Of a stretch of 64,000 nt of DNA, positions 1 to 52,028 are shown one piece after another. The translations under genes and the position numbers were made by a program. Each line of letters opens with the position of its first letter. Position 1 is the stretch's first letter. The notes under the pieces were generated by a model. That model searched no databases. It saw only the letters and a list, made by a program, of their open reading frames with translations, and was not told the origin of the DNA. The stretch is from Levilactobacillus angrenensis (GTDB taxonomy: Bacteria > Bacillota > Bacilli > Lactobacillales > Lactobacillaceae), in assembly GCF_003946085.1 (NCBI RefSeq), contig NZ_RHOB01000001.1, forward strand, positions 124,001 through 188,000. The letters run 5' to 3'.

Positions 1-2096
1 TGAGGGTTTGGGTTGAGGGTTGGTGCTGGGTTTGGCTCCGGATTTGGTCTCGGGGTTGGGCCCGGGTTGGGCCCCGGATTTGGTTCTGGGTTTGGCGCTG
101 GGTTTGGCGCTGGATTTGGCCCTGGATTCGGTTCTGGGTTTGGCTCCGGATTCGGCTCCGGATTGGGTTCTGGTTTCGGCTCTGGACTTGGTTCTGGGCT
201 TGGTTCTGGGCTTGGTTCCGGGTTGGGCCCTGGGTTCGGTTCCGGATTTGGTTCCGGATTTGGTTCCGGATTTGGCCCTGGATTCGGGCTCGGTTCTGGG
301 CTCGGTTCTGGGTCAGGGTCAGGGTCAGGGTCAGGGTCAGGCCCCGGTGCAGGCGTCACCGGTAAGTGCCGATAATACAATTTGACAGACTGCCGCTCCT
401 CTGTGAATTCCACGGACAGGTTGCCCGTGCTACTCCGCACAAACTCATATCCCGGAATCATCGGTGGCGTCAGGGAATAATTGGTACTGAGTTCTCCTCG
501 TCTTACTTGTGACGGTGCCAGCGTCGCGTGCGTGGCCTGGTCTTCATAGTCAATCTGTATTTCAGACATCTGTGGCTTCCGTACATAGGTGTCCGCCACC
601 GCCGGGCCATAGTTGTGCTCCAGGTCTGAAATTGACCACAGTCGTCCCTGAGGCTGGTCGATTGTCCCCGTACCTACAGCCTGCCACTGACTTTTGGCCC
701 GACTAGCATTGTCGGAAACATCCAGCCCCACCGTATAATTATGCTGATCCAGCAAGATATCTTTTGCGCCCAAATGTAAGGTCTCCAGATTAGACATGTT
801 GGCCAACATTTCCTCAGCCCGCCCATCCGTCCAAAAGAAGGGATCGTCAGAGCTGTAATCAAAGTGGGTCATGTCAAAACTAGAAATATCTAGATTTCTT
901 ACGGCAGAATAATCAAACATTTTTTGCATACTGCCCGCATCATCTGTTTGCCATCCACGCACATTCAGTGTCGTCGTATGGGCTTTGCCAAACATCTGCT
1001 CAAAGTTTCTCACGTGGCGGACATCCCAATGCGATAAATCCAATGATTCCGCGCCCACATCACGAAACATCTGCTGCATCCGGGTCACGCGCCCAACGTC
1101 CCAATCCGTTAGCGCAAGGGTTTTGGCCGGCACAGACTGAAACATCATTTCCATGTCCGTGACGCGTCCCGTCTGCCAGCCGCTGACATTCAAGTAATTT
1201 AGGTACCGACACAGGCGAAACATTGATTCCATCGTGGTTACCGCGCCAACTTGCCACCGGTGTAGATCTAGTCGCTCCACGCCACTACCGCCAAACATGT
1301 CGTCCATTCTCGTAACCTGACGGGTATCCCAGTCTTCGATCCCCACTTGGGAGAGTTCCGGCGTACCATTAAACATGCCTCCCATGTTTGTAACTTGCCC
1401 CGTTTGCCAAGTACTGATTGCTAGATGCTGCAGGCTTTCCATCTCATCAAACGTATACGACATGTTCGTCACGTGGCTCACGTCCCAATGATCCAAATCC
1501 AATTGTTGAATTGCCGTCTTAGCAAACATGCCATTGATGAACTTTAAACTGGGCGTTTGCCAGTTTTCAACGTCCACTTCATACAGGGAACTATCCCCCC
1601 AAAACATATTCCACATACTGGTGACATGACTGACATCCCAAGCATCTAAATCCAAATATTCAAGCTGATGGTCCTCAGCGAACATGCTCATCATATTGGT
1701 GACATGACTGGTATCTAGCAGGTCTATTCCCCATATTCGCTCCAACTGATCTAAATTTTCAAATAAGCGGTCGCACATTGGCGGTAGCTGGACTGGTCCT
1801 AAAATCTGAATTTCTTGAATATTGGCTGAATACTTGCGCCAAGAAGGCTGGCTAGTCATTTTACCAGCCCCTATCTGAAGGACCCCATCGGCAAGCGTCC
1901 ATTTACTAGTGCCAGAATACCCCGAGGCTCGAATCCCCCACATTCTGGTCGTTGTCGTCACCGCATGACCATTTTTAACTGCCAACACGGGCTGATTATC
2001 CTGCCATTCCCAGCTACACAACGCCACTCCTACAACTAGTCCCAGTTTCAAAACAAACGCAATCTGATTGCTTTTGAACCGCCACTTGCTCTGCAT
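1..2096 (-). CDS. BspA-like leucine-rich-repeat surface protein with MucBP-type domain (3' end cut off by window)
   Basis: The reading frame runs open from ATG at 2096 to the left edge, about 698 codons without a stop. The start has a strong ribosome site (AAAGGAGG, 5 bases upstream). The N-terminus [20 protein letters not shown] has a membrane segment suggesting a signal sequence. From about residue 110 to 400 there are some 13 copies of a ~22-residue repeat of the pattern '[16 protein letters not shown]', the DUF285/BspA leucine-rich repeat. A domain with '[12 protein letters not shown]' and 'IPGYEF' resembling MucBP follows, then a Pro-X tail. Such proteins are wall-anchored adhesins; the LPXTG anchor is expected beyond the window but is not seen. 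It is preceded by its own promoter and a dre-like palindrome. Confidence 0.88.
3..340 (-). repeat. Pro-X dipeptide tandem repeat (wall-spanning linker of the adhesin gene)
   Basis: On the minus strand the codons alternate CCx (Pro) with Asn, Glu, Gly, Ala, Ser, Thr or Asp for more than 100 residues: first PDPDPDP from a 6-base tandem (gggtca, 309-338), then PEPSPEP, PEPNPEP and PGPNPAP blocks. It is the kind of extended proline-rich segment that spans the peptidoglycan before an LPXTG anchor. The near-perfect 6-, 12- and 18-base periodicity makes it likely to vary in length by slippage or recombination. Confidence 0.9.
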
Positions 2097-12083: not shown

Positions 12084-12225
12084 TTAACTTAATTAAAAGA
12101 AAAAATAGTAGCCGTAGTAGAGCGGTGTATTCTGTGGATAACTTTGAGAAACAGGCTGTGAGATTAGACTTTCCACCTGTGGATAACTTGTGGAAAACTT
12201 TGACCTTTTTCGAAATTTATCCACA
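12084..12225. other. oriC, dnaA-dnaN side: DnaA boxes, DnaA-trios and AT-rich unwinding element
   Basis: Three perfect DnaA boxes: TGTGGATAA at 12133-12141 and 12178-12186, TTATCCACA at 12217-12225. Left of the first box on the plus strand are four TAG triplets (12106-12111 and 12115-12120), read 3'-GAT-5' when leaving the box. Next comes an AT-only/purine run (12084-12105). The order box, trio, AT-rich run is that of the basal unwinding system described in Bacillus subtilis, so this is the probable site of strand opening. The rest of the 12052-12323 gap shows nothing else. Confidence 0.8.
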
Positions 12226-12323
12226 CACGCTGTGGTCACCTGTTTTTATCATACCGCAACTGGTCACAAAAAGACCGTCGCGAGTCTGCCGATTACTGGG
12301 TGACCAGCGACGATCTAACCGTC

Positions 12324-13682
12324 CTAGTGCCGCAATTCATCTTTTAAGCTGTCGATGTCTTTTTGCAGCTGGGCATCGGTCTTTAAAATTTCTGTGATCT
12401 TGTCGTAGGCGTGGATCACGGTCGTGTGGTCTTTACCGCCGAATTCGTTGCCGATACGGGGTAAGGAAGCCTCCGTGAGTTCACGGGACAGGTACATCGC
12501 AATCTGCCGGGGCATGACGATGGCCTTTTTACGTTTCTTGCCCTTGAGATCTTTGAGCGAGACGTTGAAATAGTTGGCCACGCGGTCTTGGATCACGGGA
12601 ATCGTGACCGCATCGCTGGCGTTGGCTAAATTCAAACTCTTGAGCGCTTCGGCCGCCAAGTCAGTGGTGATCGGCTGATGCATCAATTGGGAGTAAGCTT
12701 GGACGCGGGCCAAAGCCCCTTCCAGCTCCCGCACGTTAGAGTCGATCTGGCCGGCGATGTAGCTGAGCGTGTCATCGGGGATGTCGATTTGATCGGCATC
12801 GGCCTTGTTGCGGAGAATGGCGATCCGTGTTTCGAGGTCCGGTGGCGTGATGTCAACGGATAATCCCCAGGCAAACCGCGAGACTAAGCGGTCTTGAAGC
12901 TTGGGAATCTCGTTAGGCAGCCGGTCGGACGTCAGCACGATTTGCTTGCCATCGTCGTAGAGGGCATTAAAAGTATGGAAGAACTCTTCTTGCGTTCCTT
13001 CCTTATTAGCGAAGAACTGAATATCATCAACTAGCAGTAAGTCAACGTTGCGGTACTCCTGACGAAACTGCTCCTGCGTCCGGGTTTGAATCGCATTGAT
13101 AAAGTCATTCGTGAAGGCCTCGCTAGTCACGTATTTGACCTTGGTGTCGGGGCGATCTTCCAACATTTTGTTGCCAATCGCGTGCATCAAGTGGGTCTTG
13201 CCCAACCCGACGCCACCATAAAAGAACAGCGGATTGTACATCACGCCGGGTTCTTCTGAGACGACCAGGGCCGCAGCATGGGCCATTTGGTTGCCTTTGC
13301 CGATGACGAACGTGTCAAACGTGTAGCGAGAATTAAGCGCCGTTTCCTTCATAAAGGTCGGCGTCGGTTCAGTCGTCACCGTTTCTCCAGGGGTGGCCGT
13401 CTTGGCCTTGAGCGTCGCTTGTTGCTGGCGTTCCCCCTCTAAGATGAGGACGGGCTGAATATCTTCGTGAGCGGCTTGGTATGCGTATTCTACCAATTGC
13501 TGGTCCAGATGTTGATGGGTCCAGTAATCACGATGCAGGGGTGATGGGAGTTCCAACGTTAATTTATTGCCGTTTAGGGCAATCGGCTTGGCGGTTTCGA
13601 TCCAGGTCGAGTAGGCCGTCTTTGAGTTGTTTTCTTCAAACAACGCTTTGATATCAGTCCACAAAGTTAACATATCTGGCAC
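12324..13682 (-). CDS. dnaA: Chromosomal replication initiator DnaA
   Basis: 452 residues. Domain I is at the N-terminus ([23 protein letters not shown]); a short variable domain II follows. The AAA+ domain has Walker [16 protein letters not shown] and Walker [13 protein letters not shown]-terminal domain IV has the DnaA signature [15 protein letters not shown], which reads DnaA boxes. The GTG start at 13682 is preferred because AGGGGG lies 8 bases upstream; the ATG three codons later is too far from it. DnaA boxes on both sides suggest autoregulation. Confidence 0.97.
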
Positions 13683-13721
13683 TGAGGTATCCCCCTATTT
13701 TAGTTTAGAAAGCTCATTGAA

Positions 13722-13773
13722 CTTTTGGACGGACTCCGCCCAAAAGAAAACGTAAGTCCAGTGTAGCATGAAG
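13722..13773 (-). promoter_or_regulatory. dnaA promoter and leader hairpin
   Basis: Minus strand extended -10 TGCTACACT (13765-13773) lies about 85 bases before the dnaA start. Within the leader, CTTTTGGACGG...CCGCCCAAAAG (13722-13746) forms an 11-bp stem with one mismatch and a 3-base loop, a candidate 5'-UTR structure. Confidence 0.5.
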
Positions 13774-13782
13774 AAAAAAAGT

Positions 13783-14060
13783 TTTCCACAGGGTATTTAG
13801 ACCTGTGCATAATTGTTTCACAGAAAGTGAATTGAGTTTTCCACAGGGACGAGAAAATCTGTGGATAATCTTCAGTCAAATCAGTTATGCACAGGCTACT
13901 GTGGATTACAAACGTGACAGTATCAAGTGTTTCACAAGTTATCCACAGAAATCACATTCCCCAATTTTAGAAAATAAACAGCCTGTGGAACGGTGGATAA
14001 CTCGGTTGGCAACTCCCGAATAACTTTTTCTGAAATAGCAACTTATCCACAAGCAAAGTG
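13783..14060. other. oriC, dnaA-rpmH side: cluster of seven DnaA boxes
   Basis: Boxes read TGTGCATAA 13804-13812, TGTGGATAA 13860-13868, TTATGCACA 13885-13893, TGTGGATTA 13900-13908, TTATCCACA 13939-13947, GGTGGATAA 13992-14000 and TTATCCACA 14043-14051. They occur in both orientations in an AT-rich gap with no gene. With the cluster on the other side of dnaA this makes a bipartite origin like that of B. subtilis. Confidence 0.92.
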
Positions 14061-15712: not shown

Positions 15713-15899
15713 GTCGTGGCGCTCACCTCCTTTCAGATGGCTATACTGTTACTAACGAAATGAAATTGATTTTTGTAACCTGTCAGCGATGTGACTTAAG
15801 GATTTCTTAGTTTTTGGCTGCGGGTTGAAAGTAACGCTAATTCGCTGAATCTTGAAATACCAGTATCCTAACCCCTAAAATCGGCTAAAATACTTGCAT

Positions 15900-16235
15900 T
15901 AGCCAGGATATCGCCTGCTCAAGAGGAAGTCCGGGACGTGCAGTTGACCGAGTACCGTTGTCTCGGGGTGAAGAGGTATTCATTGGTAGCTACCACCGTA
16001 GCCGAGAGTTCGCTAGAGATGAGTTCAGCTGTGGGGGTTCCCTTAGCGGCACGGTTCACGGCGCTTAGGGAACTGGCAACTTGGAGACGCGGTTTTCGGC
16101 TTCAAGCTGAGGTCCAAGACCGTCCTTTGGCTTGGACCGACGCCCGCAGCGGACCAACTCATCTCTAGCGAACGGTAAGGCGGTCTGGTAGACTTAACGG
16201 GAAATCTAGTCAGTGTGAAGGAAACCACAACTGGT
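15900..16235 (-). repeat. Structured interspersed repeat, copy A (minus orientation)
   Basis: Gene-free gap between yidC and jag. Read on the minus strand it aligns with the copy at 26.1 kb: CGTCTC, CTAAGCG...CCGCTAAG and CTCTCGGCTAC are shared. Its closing helix is a perfect 18-bp pair: GTTCGCTAGAGATGAGTT (16008-16025) with AACTCATCTCTAGCGAAC (16156-16173). An inner helix pairs 16036-16050 with 16060-16074. The sequence differs widely from other copies but pairing is kept. 15713-15899 upstream shows only AT-rich DNA. Confidence 0.8.
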
Positions 16236-18699: not shown

Positions 18700-19012
18700 T
18701 GTGAGCTGGTCGCCTGCGGCTGTCAGGAATTCTGCCTGCTATGGGGAACGATTCTAGGCAAAAAGCGGGCTACCATCTCGCCTTGAAGCTCCGCAAGTGT
18801 CACGGGTCAAAGACGTCCCAAGCTGTAGACGCCCCCAAAACGGCAGTCAACACCGTCGTCGTAGCTGGCGCCATTCCTGGCGTCTTTGAGACGTGATTTT
18901 CGGCGCAAAGCGAGAACGAGACCGCTCTTTGGCTCGTTCGGTCCGCCCACCGCGTTCCAGCCCATATTGGGCGAACGGTAGGCGACCAGCCTGGCATAAT
19001 GTAGTTGAAATT
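18700..19012 (-). repeat. Structured interspersed repeat, copy B (minus orientation)
   Basis: Fills the mnmE-mnmG gap. On the minus strand it carries GGTCGCCTACCGTTCGCCC, TGGAACGCGGTGGGCGGACC and GCCGAAAATCACGTCTCAAA, shared with copies at 26, 45 and 52 kb. A local hairpin GAACGAG/CTCGTTC replaces CCGAG/CTCGG of the 26-kb copy, again with pairing kept. The element is bounded by an 11-bp inverted repeat GCTGGTCGCCT (18704-18714) and AGGCGACCAGC (about 18981-18991). The right half differs from the other copies. Confidence 0.75.
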
Positions 19013-26040: not shown

Positions 26041-26661
26041 GTTTAAGTTGAAAGATGAAAATCAGCTAGAAACATCGGCATCACGCGAAAAATTAGTCGA
26101 TTACCACTTCGTAGTGTGTACTGGTCGCCTACCGTCCGCCAACTATGGGTTGGAACGCGGTGGGCGGACCGGACCGAGCCTGAGGGACGGTCTCGGCCTC
26201 GCTTTGAGCCGAAAAACACGTCTCAAAGACGCCAGTTATCTAAGCGGCATGAACCCGCGCCGCTAAGATAACTCCCACGGCTGAATCCATATTTGGTGGA
26301 CTCTCGGCTACAAGGGAGTGTACCGGTAACAATCGGTTTAGCCCCCAGGTGGCAGCCAATCTAGCACAGATTCTTAACACGGCGTTGCCGATAATGACCA
26401 ATCCGCCGGAGGCAGCCAGCTGTGGCGACGGTGTTGGCTGAGGTTTTTTCTCAGCCTACAGCGTGGGGCGACTTTGGAGACTGGCGGGTTGTGCCAGGCT
26501 TCAAAGCGAACCGGAAGACCGTTCCTCAGGCTGGAGGTGTCCCCCAGAGCAGGTGGAATCTCTGGTTGACGCAGGCTCCTGGCCTCACTAATTTTAGTGG
26601 ACAGAACCCTGTCGTTTCGGGGATTTCCGTATTAATGCTACTTTCAACCTTCAGTGTTTAA
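26041..26661 (+). repeat. Structured interspersed repeat, copy C (longest, plus orientation)
   Basis: A 620-base gene-free block. The core is enclosed by an 18-bp helix, GTCCGCCAACTATGGGTT (26134-26151) with AATCCATATTTGGTGGAC (26284-26301), one mismatch plus G-T pairs. Inside are hairpins CCGAG/CTCGG, CTTTGAG/CTCAAAG and AGTTATCTAAGCGGC/GCCGCTAAGATAACT (26234-26248 with 26259-26273). Right of the core, segments such as TTTTAGTGGACAGAAC and ATTAATGCTACTT recur in the 45-kb copy. Short reading frames inside it have no ribosome site and are not conserved between copies. Confidence 0.85.
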
Positions 26662-31730: not shown

Positions 31731-31763
31731 AGAGTTTGGGACATCACCGCCCAAACTTTTTTT
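31731..31763 (+). terminator. Terminator of the marR gene
   Basis: AGTTTGGG, loop, CCCAAACTTTTTTT, followed by GTGCACCCACT. A related hairpin with the same flank occurs in reverse at 37600-37635. Confidence 0.8.
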
Positions 31764-31779
31764 GTGCACCCACTGAAAG

Positions 31780-31881
31780 TTGCAACCGAAAATCAGCTAG
31801 AACCATTGGCACCACGCGATTTATGGCGTAAAGCCCAATCGTTTTTCGCATTGGCCACCTGTCGTCCGCTCAATCCGTGTG
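31780..31881 (+). repeat. Structured interspersed repeat, copy D (truncated left end)
   Basis: GAAAATCAGCTAGAACCATT and the following CACCACGCGA match the left ends of the 26- and 52-kb copies. Similarity fades after about CGTCCGCTCAATCCGTG, where the core helix should begin. It looks like a decayed remnant. Confidence 0.6.
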
Positions 31882-37520: not shown

Positions 37521-38095
37521 GCACAGCAAGTGGGCGAGTGGGACAAAAGGCGGTTAGCTGCCTTTTGGCGCAGGTTTCAGCCATTTAAAGTTGGTGCACA
37601 AAAAGAGTTTGGGTGGTTTTATCCCAAACTCTTTAGCTGGTTAGATGACAAAAAAAGCCGTCCCTGGTTAGAGGACGGCGGCGACTCGCTTGGTTAGGGC
37701 AAGTCGTTCATTTTATTTGGTGAATAAAATGAAAAAAGGTTGGTTAATAGGTTTTTATTGGTATGCTTGTATCCTAGCTGGTAATTGTGAAGAAAGTGTG
37801 AATAATATTTACATACTAGTAATAGTTACCATCAGAATTACCTAAACGGTTAGCCGTTTTCGGTGATTTTGGGAATTGAAAGGGGGTTGGATTACTTTTT
37901 TCTAATCGTTTAAGGTGTATTTTTATATGAATTCCGTAATATTTAGGGATTTATATTGAACAAATTTTATATTTCTAATGGAATGCATAACATTTAAACT
38001 ATAACTTAAAAAGTTAAGATTTTATTAAGAAAATGGACTGGGCACGCAATCGCCCAGTCCATTTGAATGTCTTAATTATTTTCAGCTAAGTTGGC
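37521..38095. other. Gene-poor, AT-rich island with several hairpins
   Basis: Contains hairpins AAAGAGTTTGGG/CCCAAACTCTTT (37600-37635), GCCGTCC/GGACGGC (37656-37679, T-run on the minus strand) and AAATGGACTGGGC/GCCCAGTCCATTT (38031-38064, terminator of the His-rich gene). Between 37700 and 38030 the sequence turns strongly AT-rich, unlike its surroundings. A 38-codon frame, ATG 37729 to TAA 37845 (MKKGWLIGFYWYACIL...), has only a weak ribosome site (GGTG) and is not claimed as a gene. Confidence 0.6.
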
Positions 38096-44861: not shown

Positions 44862-45285
44862 GGAAATTGGGTTATGACTATTGTCACCAGGTGACTCATG
44901 ATGTAAAAATGAGTCGTTTACAGCTTCGTAGTGGGTACTGGTCGCCTACCGTCCGCCAACTATGGGTTGGAACGCGGTGGGCGGACCGGACCGATCCTGA
45001 GAAGCGGTCTCGGCCTCGCTTTGAGCCGGGAATCGCGTCTCAAAGACGCCAGTTGCCTAAGCGGCTGAACCCATAGTTGGCAGACTCCCGGCTACAAGAG
45101 TGCGTACCAGTGGAAGTCAGCTTAGCCCCAGTTAGCAGCTAATTTGGCAACCAGTCTTTGGCCAATACAATGGTGTTGGTAATCTCTGGCAGACGCAGGC
45201 TCTTGGTTTCGCTAATTTTAGTGGACAGAACACTGTTGTTCCGGGAATTACCGCGTTAATGCTACTTCCAACCTTTAGTTGTTAA
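44862..45285 (+). repeat. Structured interspersed repeat, copy E (inside the exopolysaccharide locus)
   Basis: Lies between the PssB-like and synthase genes. It shares long near-identical blocks with the 26-kb copy: GGTCGCCTACCGTCCGCC..., TGGAACGCGGTGGGCGGACC and TTTTAGTGGACAGAAC. Closing helix GTCCGCCAACTATGGGTT (44951-44968) with AACCCATAGTTGGCAGAC (45068-45085) pairs at 17 of 18 positions. The inner hairpin of copies A and C is missing, so the core is ~135 bases instead of ~168. Confidence 0.85.
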
Positions 45286-51728: not shown

Positions 51729-52028
51729 TTAACTGAGCAAACCGATAAACGCAATCAAAGGGCTTAACAATCGCGTTAAGGCGCGATTGGTTTAGGGACT
51801 TGCTCAGTAAACGGATAAGTCGTTTGAGACGCGGGCTTTCGGCTCAAAGCGAGGCCGAGACCGTTTTTCAGGCTCGGTCCGGTCCGCCCACCGCGTTCCA
51901 ACCCATAGTTGGCGGATTGTAGGCGGTCAGTTCTCGCTACGAAGCTGTGAACGACTAATTCTTACACCATGAGTCGCGTGGTGACAATGGTTCTAGCTGA
52001 TTTTTGTCTTTCAACTTTCAGTTCCAAA
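51729..52028 (-). repeat. Structured interspersed repeat, copy F (minus orientation, altered right half)
   Basis: On the minus strand it opens with GTTGAAAGACAAAAATCAGC, continues with CCGCCAACTATGGGTTGGAA and GGTCTCGGCCTCGCTTTGAG, matching copies C and E. After CGTCTCAAA it diverges into a different fold with ACTGAGCAA/TTGCTCAGT arms and AATCGCG/CGCGATT. The right arm of the closing helix is therefore missing. 51582-51728 shows no other feature. Confidence 0.75.

What the first reader, a model, noticed from the sequence alone, without database searches (positions are those of the whole stretch)
26041..26661. A family of interspersed structured repeats in intergenic DNA (at least five to six copies in 36 kb)
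Copies A (15900-16235), B (18700-19012), C (26041-26661), D (31780-31881, partial), E (44862-45285) and F (51729-52028) share blocks such as GGTCGCCTACCG, TGGAACGCGGTGGGCGGACC and GCCGAAAA..CGTCTC. A, B and F are on the minus strand; C, D and E on the plus strand. They avoid coding sequence, carry no transposase and are packed with hairpins. Such density so close to oriC is unusual. It may be a MITE-like element, a dispersed non-coding RNA, or a DNA structural element. I do not recognise it as a known RNA family.
Basis: seen in the sequence. Interest (0 to 1): 0.88.

Follow-up and report, generated by a model that had tools for sequence, protein, structure and literature searches.

The report
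Mobile repeat carrying paired DNA cloverleafs
The repeats are real: they are copies of a small gene-less transposable element, spread through this lactic acid bacterium's genome, that carries two mirror-image cloverleaf-folding segments whose folds are kept by matched mutations across many lactic acid bacteria, for a purpose nobody has tested here.

Summary
Copy C (about 26042-26654) is one full-length ~640-bp copy of a non-coding family; the 40 best places scored in this Levilactobacillus genome match at 79% identity or more. It is a non-autonomous transposable element (MITE): 14-bp ends CTRAAGGTTGAAAG (138 hits, control 5), exact 7-9-bp target duplications at 22 of 42 copies, and an intact IS4-family element with the same ends in another species of the genus. 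Inside lie two ~195-nt modules, D1 and, inverted, D2, each folding as a cloverleaf, better conserved among own copies than ends and spacer, with strong compensatory change. A covariance model of D1 finds relatives in 51 of 201 Lactobacillaceae genomes (10 of 40 genera); a class-wide sample of 250 gave only the own genome. Relatives in other genera are often inverted pairs (15 of 34 stretches) and rarely keep the IS4 ends. Strand test: RNase P of the genus gives G-U:A-C 58:1; D1 gives 27:29 in 27 diverse copies, which points to structure kept in DNA or on both strands. Against this, all 112 D1 copies lean 2:1 to the minus strand and D2 leans to RNA on plus. Function is unproven.

The parts
26042..26054 (+). 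Copy C, left terminal repeat (one base short of CTRAAGGTTGAAAG)
   Evidence: read; family end defined
26119..26314 (+). Copy C, module D1 (cloverleaf: basal stem P1, P1b, arms P2, P3, P4)
   Evidence: model R1 hit, 206 bits, E 3.8e-54; helices
26315..26384 (+). Copy C, fast-evolving spacer between D1 and D2 (borders approximate)
   Evidence: pairwise identity 0.75 against 0.92 (D1) and 0.89 (D2) among 30 copies
26385..26580 (+). Copy C, module D2, an inverted and diverged copy of D1 (left border approximate)
   Evidence: self-comparison; R1 hit on the minus strand 26417-26550, E 0.0002
26641..26654 (+). Copy C, right terminal repeat CTTTCAACCTTCAG
   Evidence: exact match (G000:C1:150641-150654)
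15836..16189 (-). Copy A: D1 of a divergent type (15995-16189) and D2 remnant (15836-15960)
   Evidence: R1 188 bits
18712..18989 (-). Copy B: D1 5' part (18877-18989) and D2 (18712-18881), middle deleted
   Evidence: R1 81 bits
31773..31832 (+). Copy D: left-end remnant only
   Evidence: 85% to consensus 1-61
44880..45278 (+). Copy E: left end, D1 with shortened P4 (44936-45098), D2 mostly deleted, right end
   Evidence: 135 bits
51735..52021 (-). Copy F: left end and 5' part of D1; D2 lost
   Evidence: 72 bits

Best explanation
It is a non-autonomous transposable element (MITE) of IS4-family, ISPepr1-type insertion sequences that carries a more widespread cargo: a pair of inverted ~165-195-nt modules (D1 ... 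D2), each folding as a cloverleaf. Shown: terminal repeats, 7-8-bp duplications, a partner IS with the same ends, compensatory change in the helices, stronger conservation of the modules than of ends and spacer among own copies. Inferred: an ISPepr1-type transposase acting in trans cuts at the 14-bp ends and pastes the element into AT-rich intergenic targets. After insertion the ends erode while the modules tend to stay, so the modules are kept for another reason. Because D1's pairing is kept with little regard to strand, and the unit is itself mirror-symmetric, the most likely role is a strand-symmetric one: a hairpin or cruciform in DNA (or one present in transcripts from either side) that marks or insulates intergenic ends, comparable in placement to REP/BIME elements. 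That last step is not shown.
For: Ends: 67+71 matches to CTRAAGGTTGAAAG (<=1 mismatch) against 2+3 for the control. Duplications: 22 of 42 elements with both ends have an exact direct repeat of 7-9 bp (1 more has 6, 19 have none of 5 or more), against 123 of 8400 shuffled flank pairs; where it is 7 or 8 bp (20 of 42) it is 80% AT. Partner: G210 carries a 1559-bp IS with CTAAAGGTTGAAAG at both ends and the duplication CTGATTAA and a 450-aa transposase that hits NF049925 IS4 family at 470 bits, cut-off 250. ISPepr1 ends, 7-8-bp repeats and AT preference: passages of PMC2266710. Modules: stops in all six frames of the consensus and no ORF of 80 aa or more inside copy C; 31 of 48 pairs with double changes, 135 double-change cells against 32.5 shuffled; in other genera 46 of 48 pairs (alignment fitted to the model). 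Conservation .92/.89 in D1/D2 against .80/.74 in the ends and .75 in the spacer; private changes per site .0068/.0095 against .0165 (ends) and .0157 (spacer). Strand test: RNase P G-U:A-C 58:1, D1 27:29 in 27 diverse copies; other genera 23:25 without P1b (counts, summed by hand). Same-orientation copies at the sites of A, B, C, E, F in G220, E as a 42-nt fragment. Breadth: 51 of 201 Lactobacillaceae genomes against 1 of 250 in the class sample, that one the window's own.
Against: All 112 D1 copies (union of both folds) give G-U 64, A-C 135, a 2:1 lean to the minus strand, and fold better on minus (-43.1 against -28.2); the lean comes largely from the L. brevis group, 14:40. D2 prefers G-U on plus (120:23 in 88 copies, 41:7 in 25 diverse ones; over both folds 125:41 and 41:12). 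D1(minus) and D2(plus) are homologous, so the two leans agree with one RNA sense. In other genera P1b alone is 37:12 for G-U. Tujiorum and hammesii D1 have 6 consensus A-C and no G-U pairs. At site C, D1 is no better conserved between own genome and G220 (0.70, 50 gap columns) than the left end (0.66), though D2 is (0.85). Many copies are truncated. Relatives of the partner transposase are found in only 7 of the 21 genus genomes with D1, and G210, with the intact IS, has one D1 match. Enrichment between convergent genes (47 of 103) may only reflect tolerated insertion sites. No expression or binding data exist here.
Confidence: 0.62

Rival explanations
1. Mobile structured RNA: the element encodes a functional RNA, with D2 on plus (and the minus strand of D1, its homologue) as the sense strand, transcribed outward from the spacer or by read-through.
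For: G-U preference of D2 on plus and better consensus folding energy of D2 on plus (-75.9 against -54.7); D1 leans to minus in the 112-copy set (A-C 135, G-U 64; energy -43.1 against -28.2) and in 41 diverse copies (-45.2 against -28.8); conserved unpaired positions.
Against: D1 gives G-U:A-C near 1:1 in 27 diverse copies (27:29), in own copies (36:32) and in other genera outside P1b (23:25), far from RNase P (58:1). Orientation to tandem neighbours is 24 against 24. No Rfam match. I noted no shared promoter in the element (read by eye; the promoter scan was not run).
Confidence: 0.28
2. Purely selfish MITE: the modules are passengers; the compensatory pattern comes from hairpin-templated mutation (quasipalindrome correction) and from gene conversion between copies.
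For: Real transposition marks; many truncated copies; site A in G220 has a common-type D1 while own and L. brevis have the A type, as gene conversion could give.
Against: The ends diverge faster than the modules among own copies; some unpaired columns stay nearly fixed across genera (10 of 66 at >=0.9, against 6 of 80 paired ones); the fold persists in 51 of 201 genomes, in other genera mostly without the IS4 ends (found in 1 of 38 stretches).
Confidence: 0.25
3. Bidirectional 3'-end RNA element: each of two convergent mRNAs ends in a cloverleaf that stops polymerase or blocks exonucleases, hence the mirror symmetry.
For: Enrichment between convergent genes, 47 of 103 against 53 of 294 gene pairs, p 1e-7; mirror symmetry D1(+)/D2(-).
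Against: D1 should then prefer G-U on plus and D2 on minus; the data show near neutrality or the reverse. In other genera only 5 of 16 classed units are convergent.
Confidence: 0.13

Closest known systems
MITEs of the IS4 family, ISPepr1 subgroup
   Same: 14-bp ends, CT start, 7-8-bp AT-rich duplications, no transposase, intact partner IS with the same ends in the genus
   Different: I saw no likeness of the interior to the IS; it is long (~640 bp), holds two inverted cloverleafs, and is better conserved than the ends
REP / BIME elements (enterobacteria, Pseudomonas)
   Same: Extragenic, many copies, inverted pairs, structure on both strands (REP features partly recalled)
   Different: REP units are 20-40 bp (abstract of PMC3733652 in the listing); here 165-195 nt with three arms; RAYT transposases were not looked for
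Pneumococcal BOX/RUP and similar interspersed repeats
   Same: Dispersed repeats in a Bacillota genome (abstract of PMC3049150 in the listing)
   Different: No sequence comparison made; size and fold differ as far as I recall
Large bacterial ncRNAs (ROOL, GOLLD, OLE, HEARO; names recalled)
   Same: Size of some hundreds of nt and heavy structure
   Different: No Rfam match at gathering threshold, none near a cut-off at relaxed threshold; many copies per genome

Membership tests
MITE of IS4-family, ISPepr1-type IS | Terminal inverted repeats shared with an autonomous IS | tested here: met
   CTAAAGGTTGAAAG at both ends of the IS in G210 and at the element's ends
MITE of IS4-family, ISPepr1-type IS | Target-site duplication of 7-8 bp | tested here: met
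   22 of 42 elements with an exact repeat >=7 bp (20 of them 7 or 8 bp); shuffled 123 of 8400
MITE of IS4-family, ISPepr1-type IS | No transposase gene inside | tested here: met
   stops in all six frames of the consensus; no ORF of 80 aa or more inside copy C
MITE of IS4-family, ISPepr1-type IS | End consensus YT-AA-YTT---A | tested here: inconclusive
   7 of 8 stated positions fit CTRAAGGTTGAAAG; position 7 is G, not Y (table quoted)
MITE of IS4-family, ISPepr1-type IS | Partner transposase is IS4 family with YREK motif | tested here: met
   NF049925 470 bits; Y..R...E......K read by eye in the protein (motif spacing recalled)
MITE of IS4-family, ISPepr1-type IS | Moves when the transposase is supplied | not testable with these tools
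   needs a transposition assay
REP/BIME | 20-40-bp palindromic unit | tested here: not met
   unit is 165-195 nt with several arms
REP/BIME | Linked RAYT (Y1) transposase | not tested
   no search made
Functional structured RNA | Wobble preference on one strand | tested here: inconclusive
   D1 27:29 in 27 diverse copies but 64:135 in all 112; D2 120:23; RNase P control 58:1
Functional structured RNA | Compensatory base changes | tested here: met
   31 of 48 pairs, 46 of 48 in other genera on a model-fitted alignment
Functional structured RNA | Transcription | not testable with these tools
   no expression data

The most novel reading that the evidence does not exclude
A Lactobacillaceae-wide class of chromosomal elements, inverted pairs of ~180-bp cloverleafs, at least a dozen per genome in many species and by candidate counts perhaps hundreds in some, selected for structure in DNA rather than RNA, bound or used by an unknown factor, and captured and amplified by an IS4-type MITE in Levilactobacillus.
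Probability: 0.3. Interest if true: 0.9.

Novelty: new variant of a known kind. Interest (0 to 1): 0.73.

Why it matters
Compensatory change is normally read as proof of RNA. Here D1 shows it with little or no wobble preference, beside an RNase P control that has a strong one, in a repeat found in a quarter of the sampled Lactobacillaceae (51 of 201). If the fold acts in DNA, that is a rare natural test case for selected DNA secondary structure in bacteria, and copy number and symmetry make it easy to study. The IS4 partner explains how it spread in Levilactobacillus. I found no description of it in my searches of an open-licence library.

Tried and rejected
Rfam at gathering threshold over the window and relaxed threshold over copy C: nothing usable. 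Coding function: rejected, stops in all six consensus frames, longest stop-free run about 90 codons by eye. Pseudoknot inside D1 (5' GGYCGCC with GGTGGGCGGACC): considered, pair counts inconclusive, dropped for a plain stem P1b. Phage or plasmid cargo: no blastn match in the phage or plasmid collections with copy C and no match to one D1 pattern in viral contigs. Orientation bias: none against tandem neighbours, 24 to 24. Autonomous version with a gene between D1 and D2: not found; spacers of 14 units in other genera hold no open frame above 66 codons, and flanking frames of 19 stretches look like ordinary host genes by eye, with no family search run. Paper searches for Lactobacillus repeats or MITEs gave nothing on this (listings only; passages of PMC2266710 and PMC2267715 seen).

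Limits. One search scored 40 of 280 candidates, about 23 per genome, at most 12 (17 of 51 genomes reach that cap), so higher copy numbers are inferred from loose candidate counts and from density in three syntenic stretches. A1 held 27 of 32 picked copies; the 32 were chosen from 112 for low mutual identity and at least 80% paired helix positions, which favours the structure; the unselected 112 show the same covarying pairs. A2 (36 of 39 stretches; left out L236, a same-genus locus, and L251, L269, repeats of others) was fitted to the model and holds two loci twice. D1 copies were found by an exact D1 pattern, so their D1 identity is partly ascertained; D2 identity is not. G-U and A-C cells are not independent events. 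The ORF-based context uses a crude caller and de-duplicates only identical units. On checking I added the 112-copy strand counts and the partner's patchy presence, and for that lowered the main reading from 0.68 to 0.62, the bidirectional rival from 0.15 to 0.13 and the novel case from 0.35 to 0.30, and raised the RNA rival from 0.22 to 0.28.

Full report
OBSERVATION. A direct repeat scan finds C and E 91% alike over 161 nt and the inverted matches to B, F and A. A search of the window's own genome (G000, 2.80 Mb, 62 contigs) with copy C gives 280 loose candidates, of which 40 were scored; the 40 match at 79% identity or more, most over nearly the whole ~620 nt. A covariance model of module D1 finds five D1 copies in the window at E 4e-54 to 7e-18. 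Copy D is only a left-end remnant.

ANATOMY. The 30 best own copies give a 640-nt consensus with stops in all six frames; copy C holds no ORF of 80 aa or more. It starts CTGAAGGTTGAAAG and ends CTTTCAACCTTTAG. Its two halves are diverged inverted copies of one another: self against reverse complement scores 331, 50 shuffles average 183 and reach 223 at most. I call the conserved halves D1 (about 91-287) and D2 (about 371-565), with a fast spacer between. Internal-deletion derivatives recur at the same or nearby breakpoints, such as 1-144 + 492-640 and 1-121 + 287-640.

MOBILITY. The end motif occurs 67+71 times in the genome with at most one mismatch, its backwards control 2+3 times. Of 42 elements with both ends, 22 are flanked by an exact direct repeat of 7-9 bp, one by 6 bp and 19 by none of 5 bp or more; shuffled flanks give 123 of 8400; the 7- and 8-bp repeats (20 of the 42) are 80% AT. 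One own-genome end (C30) borders a transposase remnant, the only one found there. Relatives on plasmids are annotated variously, one as IS4 family; a 1562-bp IS there has ends CTGAAACTTGAAAG, with an 8-bp duplication in one of two records looked at. In the genus, relatives occur in 10 of 35 genomes; G210 holds an intact 1559-bp IS with exactly CTAAAGGTTGAAAG at both ends and duplication CTGATTAA, and a transposase of family NF049925, IS4. The ISPepr1 subgroup is described with ends YT-AA-YTT---A, 7-8-bp repeats and AT-rich targets (PMC2266710, passages). So the element is a MITE of such an IS. Against a simple pairing, only 7 of the 21 genus genomes with D1 hold such a transposase, and G210 itself has one D1 match.

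STRUCTURE. D1 folds as a cloverleaf: an 18-bp basal stem P1, a short P1b (GTGGG/CCCAC) and arms P2, P3, P4. On 27 diverse copies 31 of 48 pairs show changes on both sides, 135 such cells against 32.5 in shuffles and at most 19 when slid. Against the first row, copy A has 5 of 18 P1 pairs changed on both sides, and a copy in G015 has 14 of 18 bases of the 5' arm changed with most pairs kept (read). RNA folding z-scores are -6.1 (plus) and -4.8 (minus) for D1 of copy C, and -2.0 and -2.5 for D2.

BREADTH. By sequence, 21 of 35 Levilactobacillus genomes have D1; the model finds it also in at least four of the others, G084, G111, G135, G159. Named carriers are L. brevis CD0817, L. suantsaiihabitans, L. 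tujiorum and L. hammesii. In 15 of 34 distinct stretches from other genera the matches come as inverted pairs, with spacers of 21 to 538 nt in the 14 read out. In g38, the genus examined most, flanks and spacers do not align between copies by eye. Outer ends there often read TTGCCGCC...GGCGGCAA. Only 1 of 38 such stretches holds an IS4-type end. In A2 46 of 48 pairs change on both sides, 736 cells against 208 shuffled (alignment fitted to the model). So the cloverleaf is wider, and I infer older, than the MITE that carries it here.

CONSTRAINT. Among 30 own copies mean pairwise identity is .92 in D1 and .89 in D2 but .75 in the spacer and .80/.74 in the ends outside the 14-bp repeats (first and last 20 nt.82 and .80); private changes per site are .0068 and .0095 against .0165 (ends) and .0157 (spacer). 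In tujiorum and hammesii loci D1 is 71-97% and D2 80-97% identical to the tujiorum consensus, while spacer and ends are mostly unrecognisable. The sites of copies A, B, C, E (a 42-nt fragment) and F hold same-orientation copies in G220, and A also in L. brevis; site B in L. brevis and site A in tujiorum hold copies in the opposite orientation, and the fetched stretches of G203 and G217 hold none. Shared sites suggest that some copies predate these species. At site C own against G220: D2 .85, D1 .70 with 50 gap columns, left end .66, spacer .58, right end .54, right flank .93. D1 at that site is therefore not protected; its P4 region was remodelled.

WHICH STRAND. In RNase P RNA of the same genus single-step deviations from Watson-Crick pairs are G-U 58, A-C 1 (plus-strand structure, 28 distinct sequences). 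In 27 diverse D1 copies they are 27 and 29, and folding energies on the two strands are alike, -59.9 and -61.9. In all 112 D1 copies the plus-strand fold gives 48 and 40, but the union of both folds gives 64 and 135, and minus folds better (-43.1 against -28.2); by species the counts are own 36:32, brevis 14:40, suantsaiihabitans 20:18, tujiorum 6:5, hammesii 3:5. In other genera D1-type modules give 23 and 25 outside P1b (summed by hand), with P1b at 37 G-U and 12 A-C. D2 differs: 120 to 23 on plus in 88 copies and 41 to 7 in 25 diverse ones, or 125:41 and 41:12 over both folds; every species group leans that way, hammesii by one cell, though own-genome singletons are 14 to 17. D1 on minus and D2 on plus are homologous, so the leans could share one RNA sense. 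I still prefer DNA or both strands for D1, since its counts are so far from the RNase P control, but I cannot reconcile the two modules fully.

PLACE. Of 103 classed copies 47 lie between convergent genes, 48 between tandem genes (24 in each orientation) and 8 between divergent genes; all gene pairs give 53, 187 and 54 (p 1e-7 and 0.01; p 0.002 and 0.0002 against gaps above 150 bp). In other genera 5, 9 and 2 of 16 classed, 17 tested. This fits avoidance of promoters and is not proof of function.

VERDICT. The MITE reading is well supported. The cloverleaf pair inside it, its reach across Lactobacillaceae and its weak or absent strand preference in D1 are what is new here; I found no description of it. 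What the modules do is open. My preferred reading is a strand-symmetric structural element, placed like REP/BIME elements but not a member of them.

Noticed in passing
window 10-357: A 12-bp tandem repeat, 21 overlapping register copies of a 108-nt reference, at the window's start, within listed open frames.
   Followed up: no
window 12177-13948: Inverted repeats holding TTATCCACA-like boxes on either side of a 452-aa frame, as expected of a dnaA/oriC region (gene names recalled).
   Followed up: no
window 31731-31783 and 37580-37632: A second, shorter repeat (AGAGTTTGGG...) present as an inverted pair; similar sequence is seen beside some element copies in other contigs.
   Followed up: no
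L122 1500-2345: The IS4 remnant of the own genome seems to be cut by another IS-like insertion with a 153-aa frame (by eye).
   Followed up: no
L267, L268, L245: In genus g24 the module sits beside the same reading frames in three genomes, so probably at one site; between L267 and L268 the P4 loop and one P4 arm differ.
   Followed up: partly
G220 site A (L175): D1 at site A is of the common type in G220 but of the A type in own genome and L. brevis, which gene conversion between copies could explain.
   Followed up: partly
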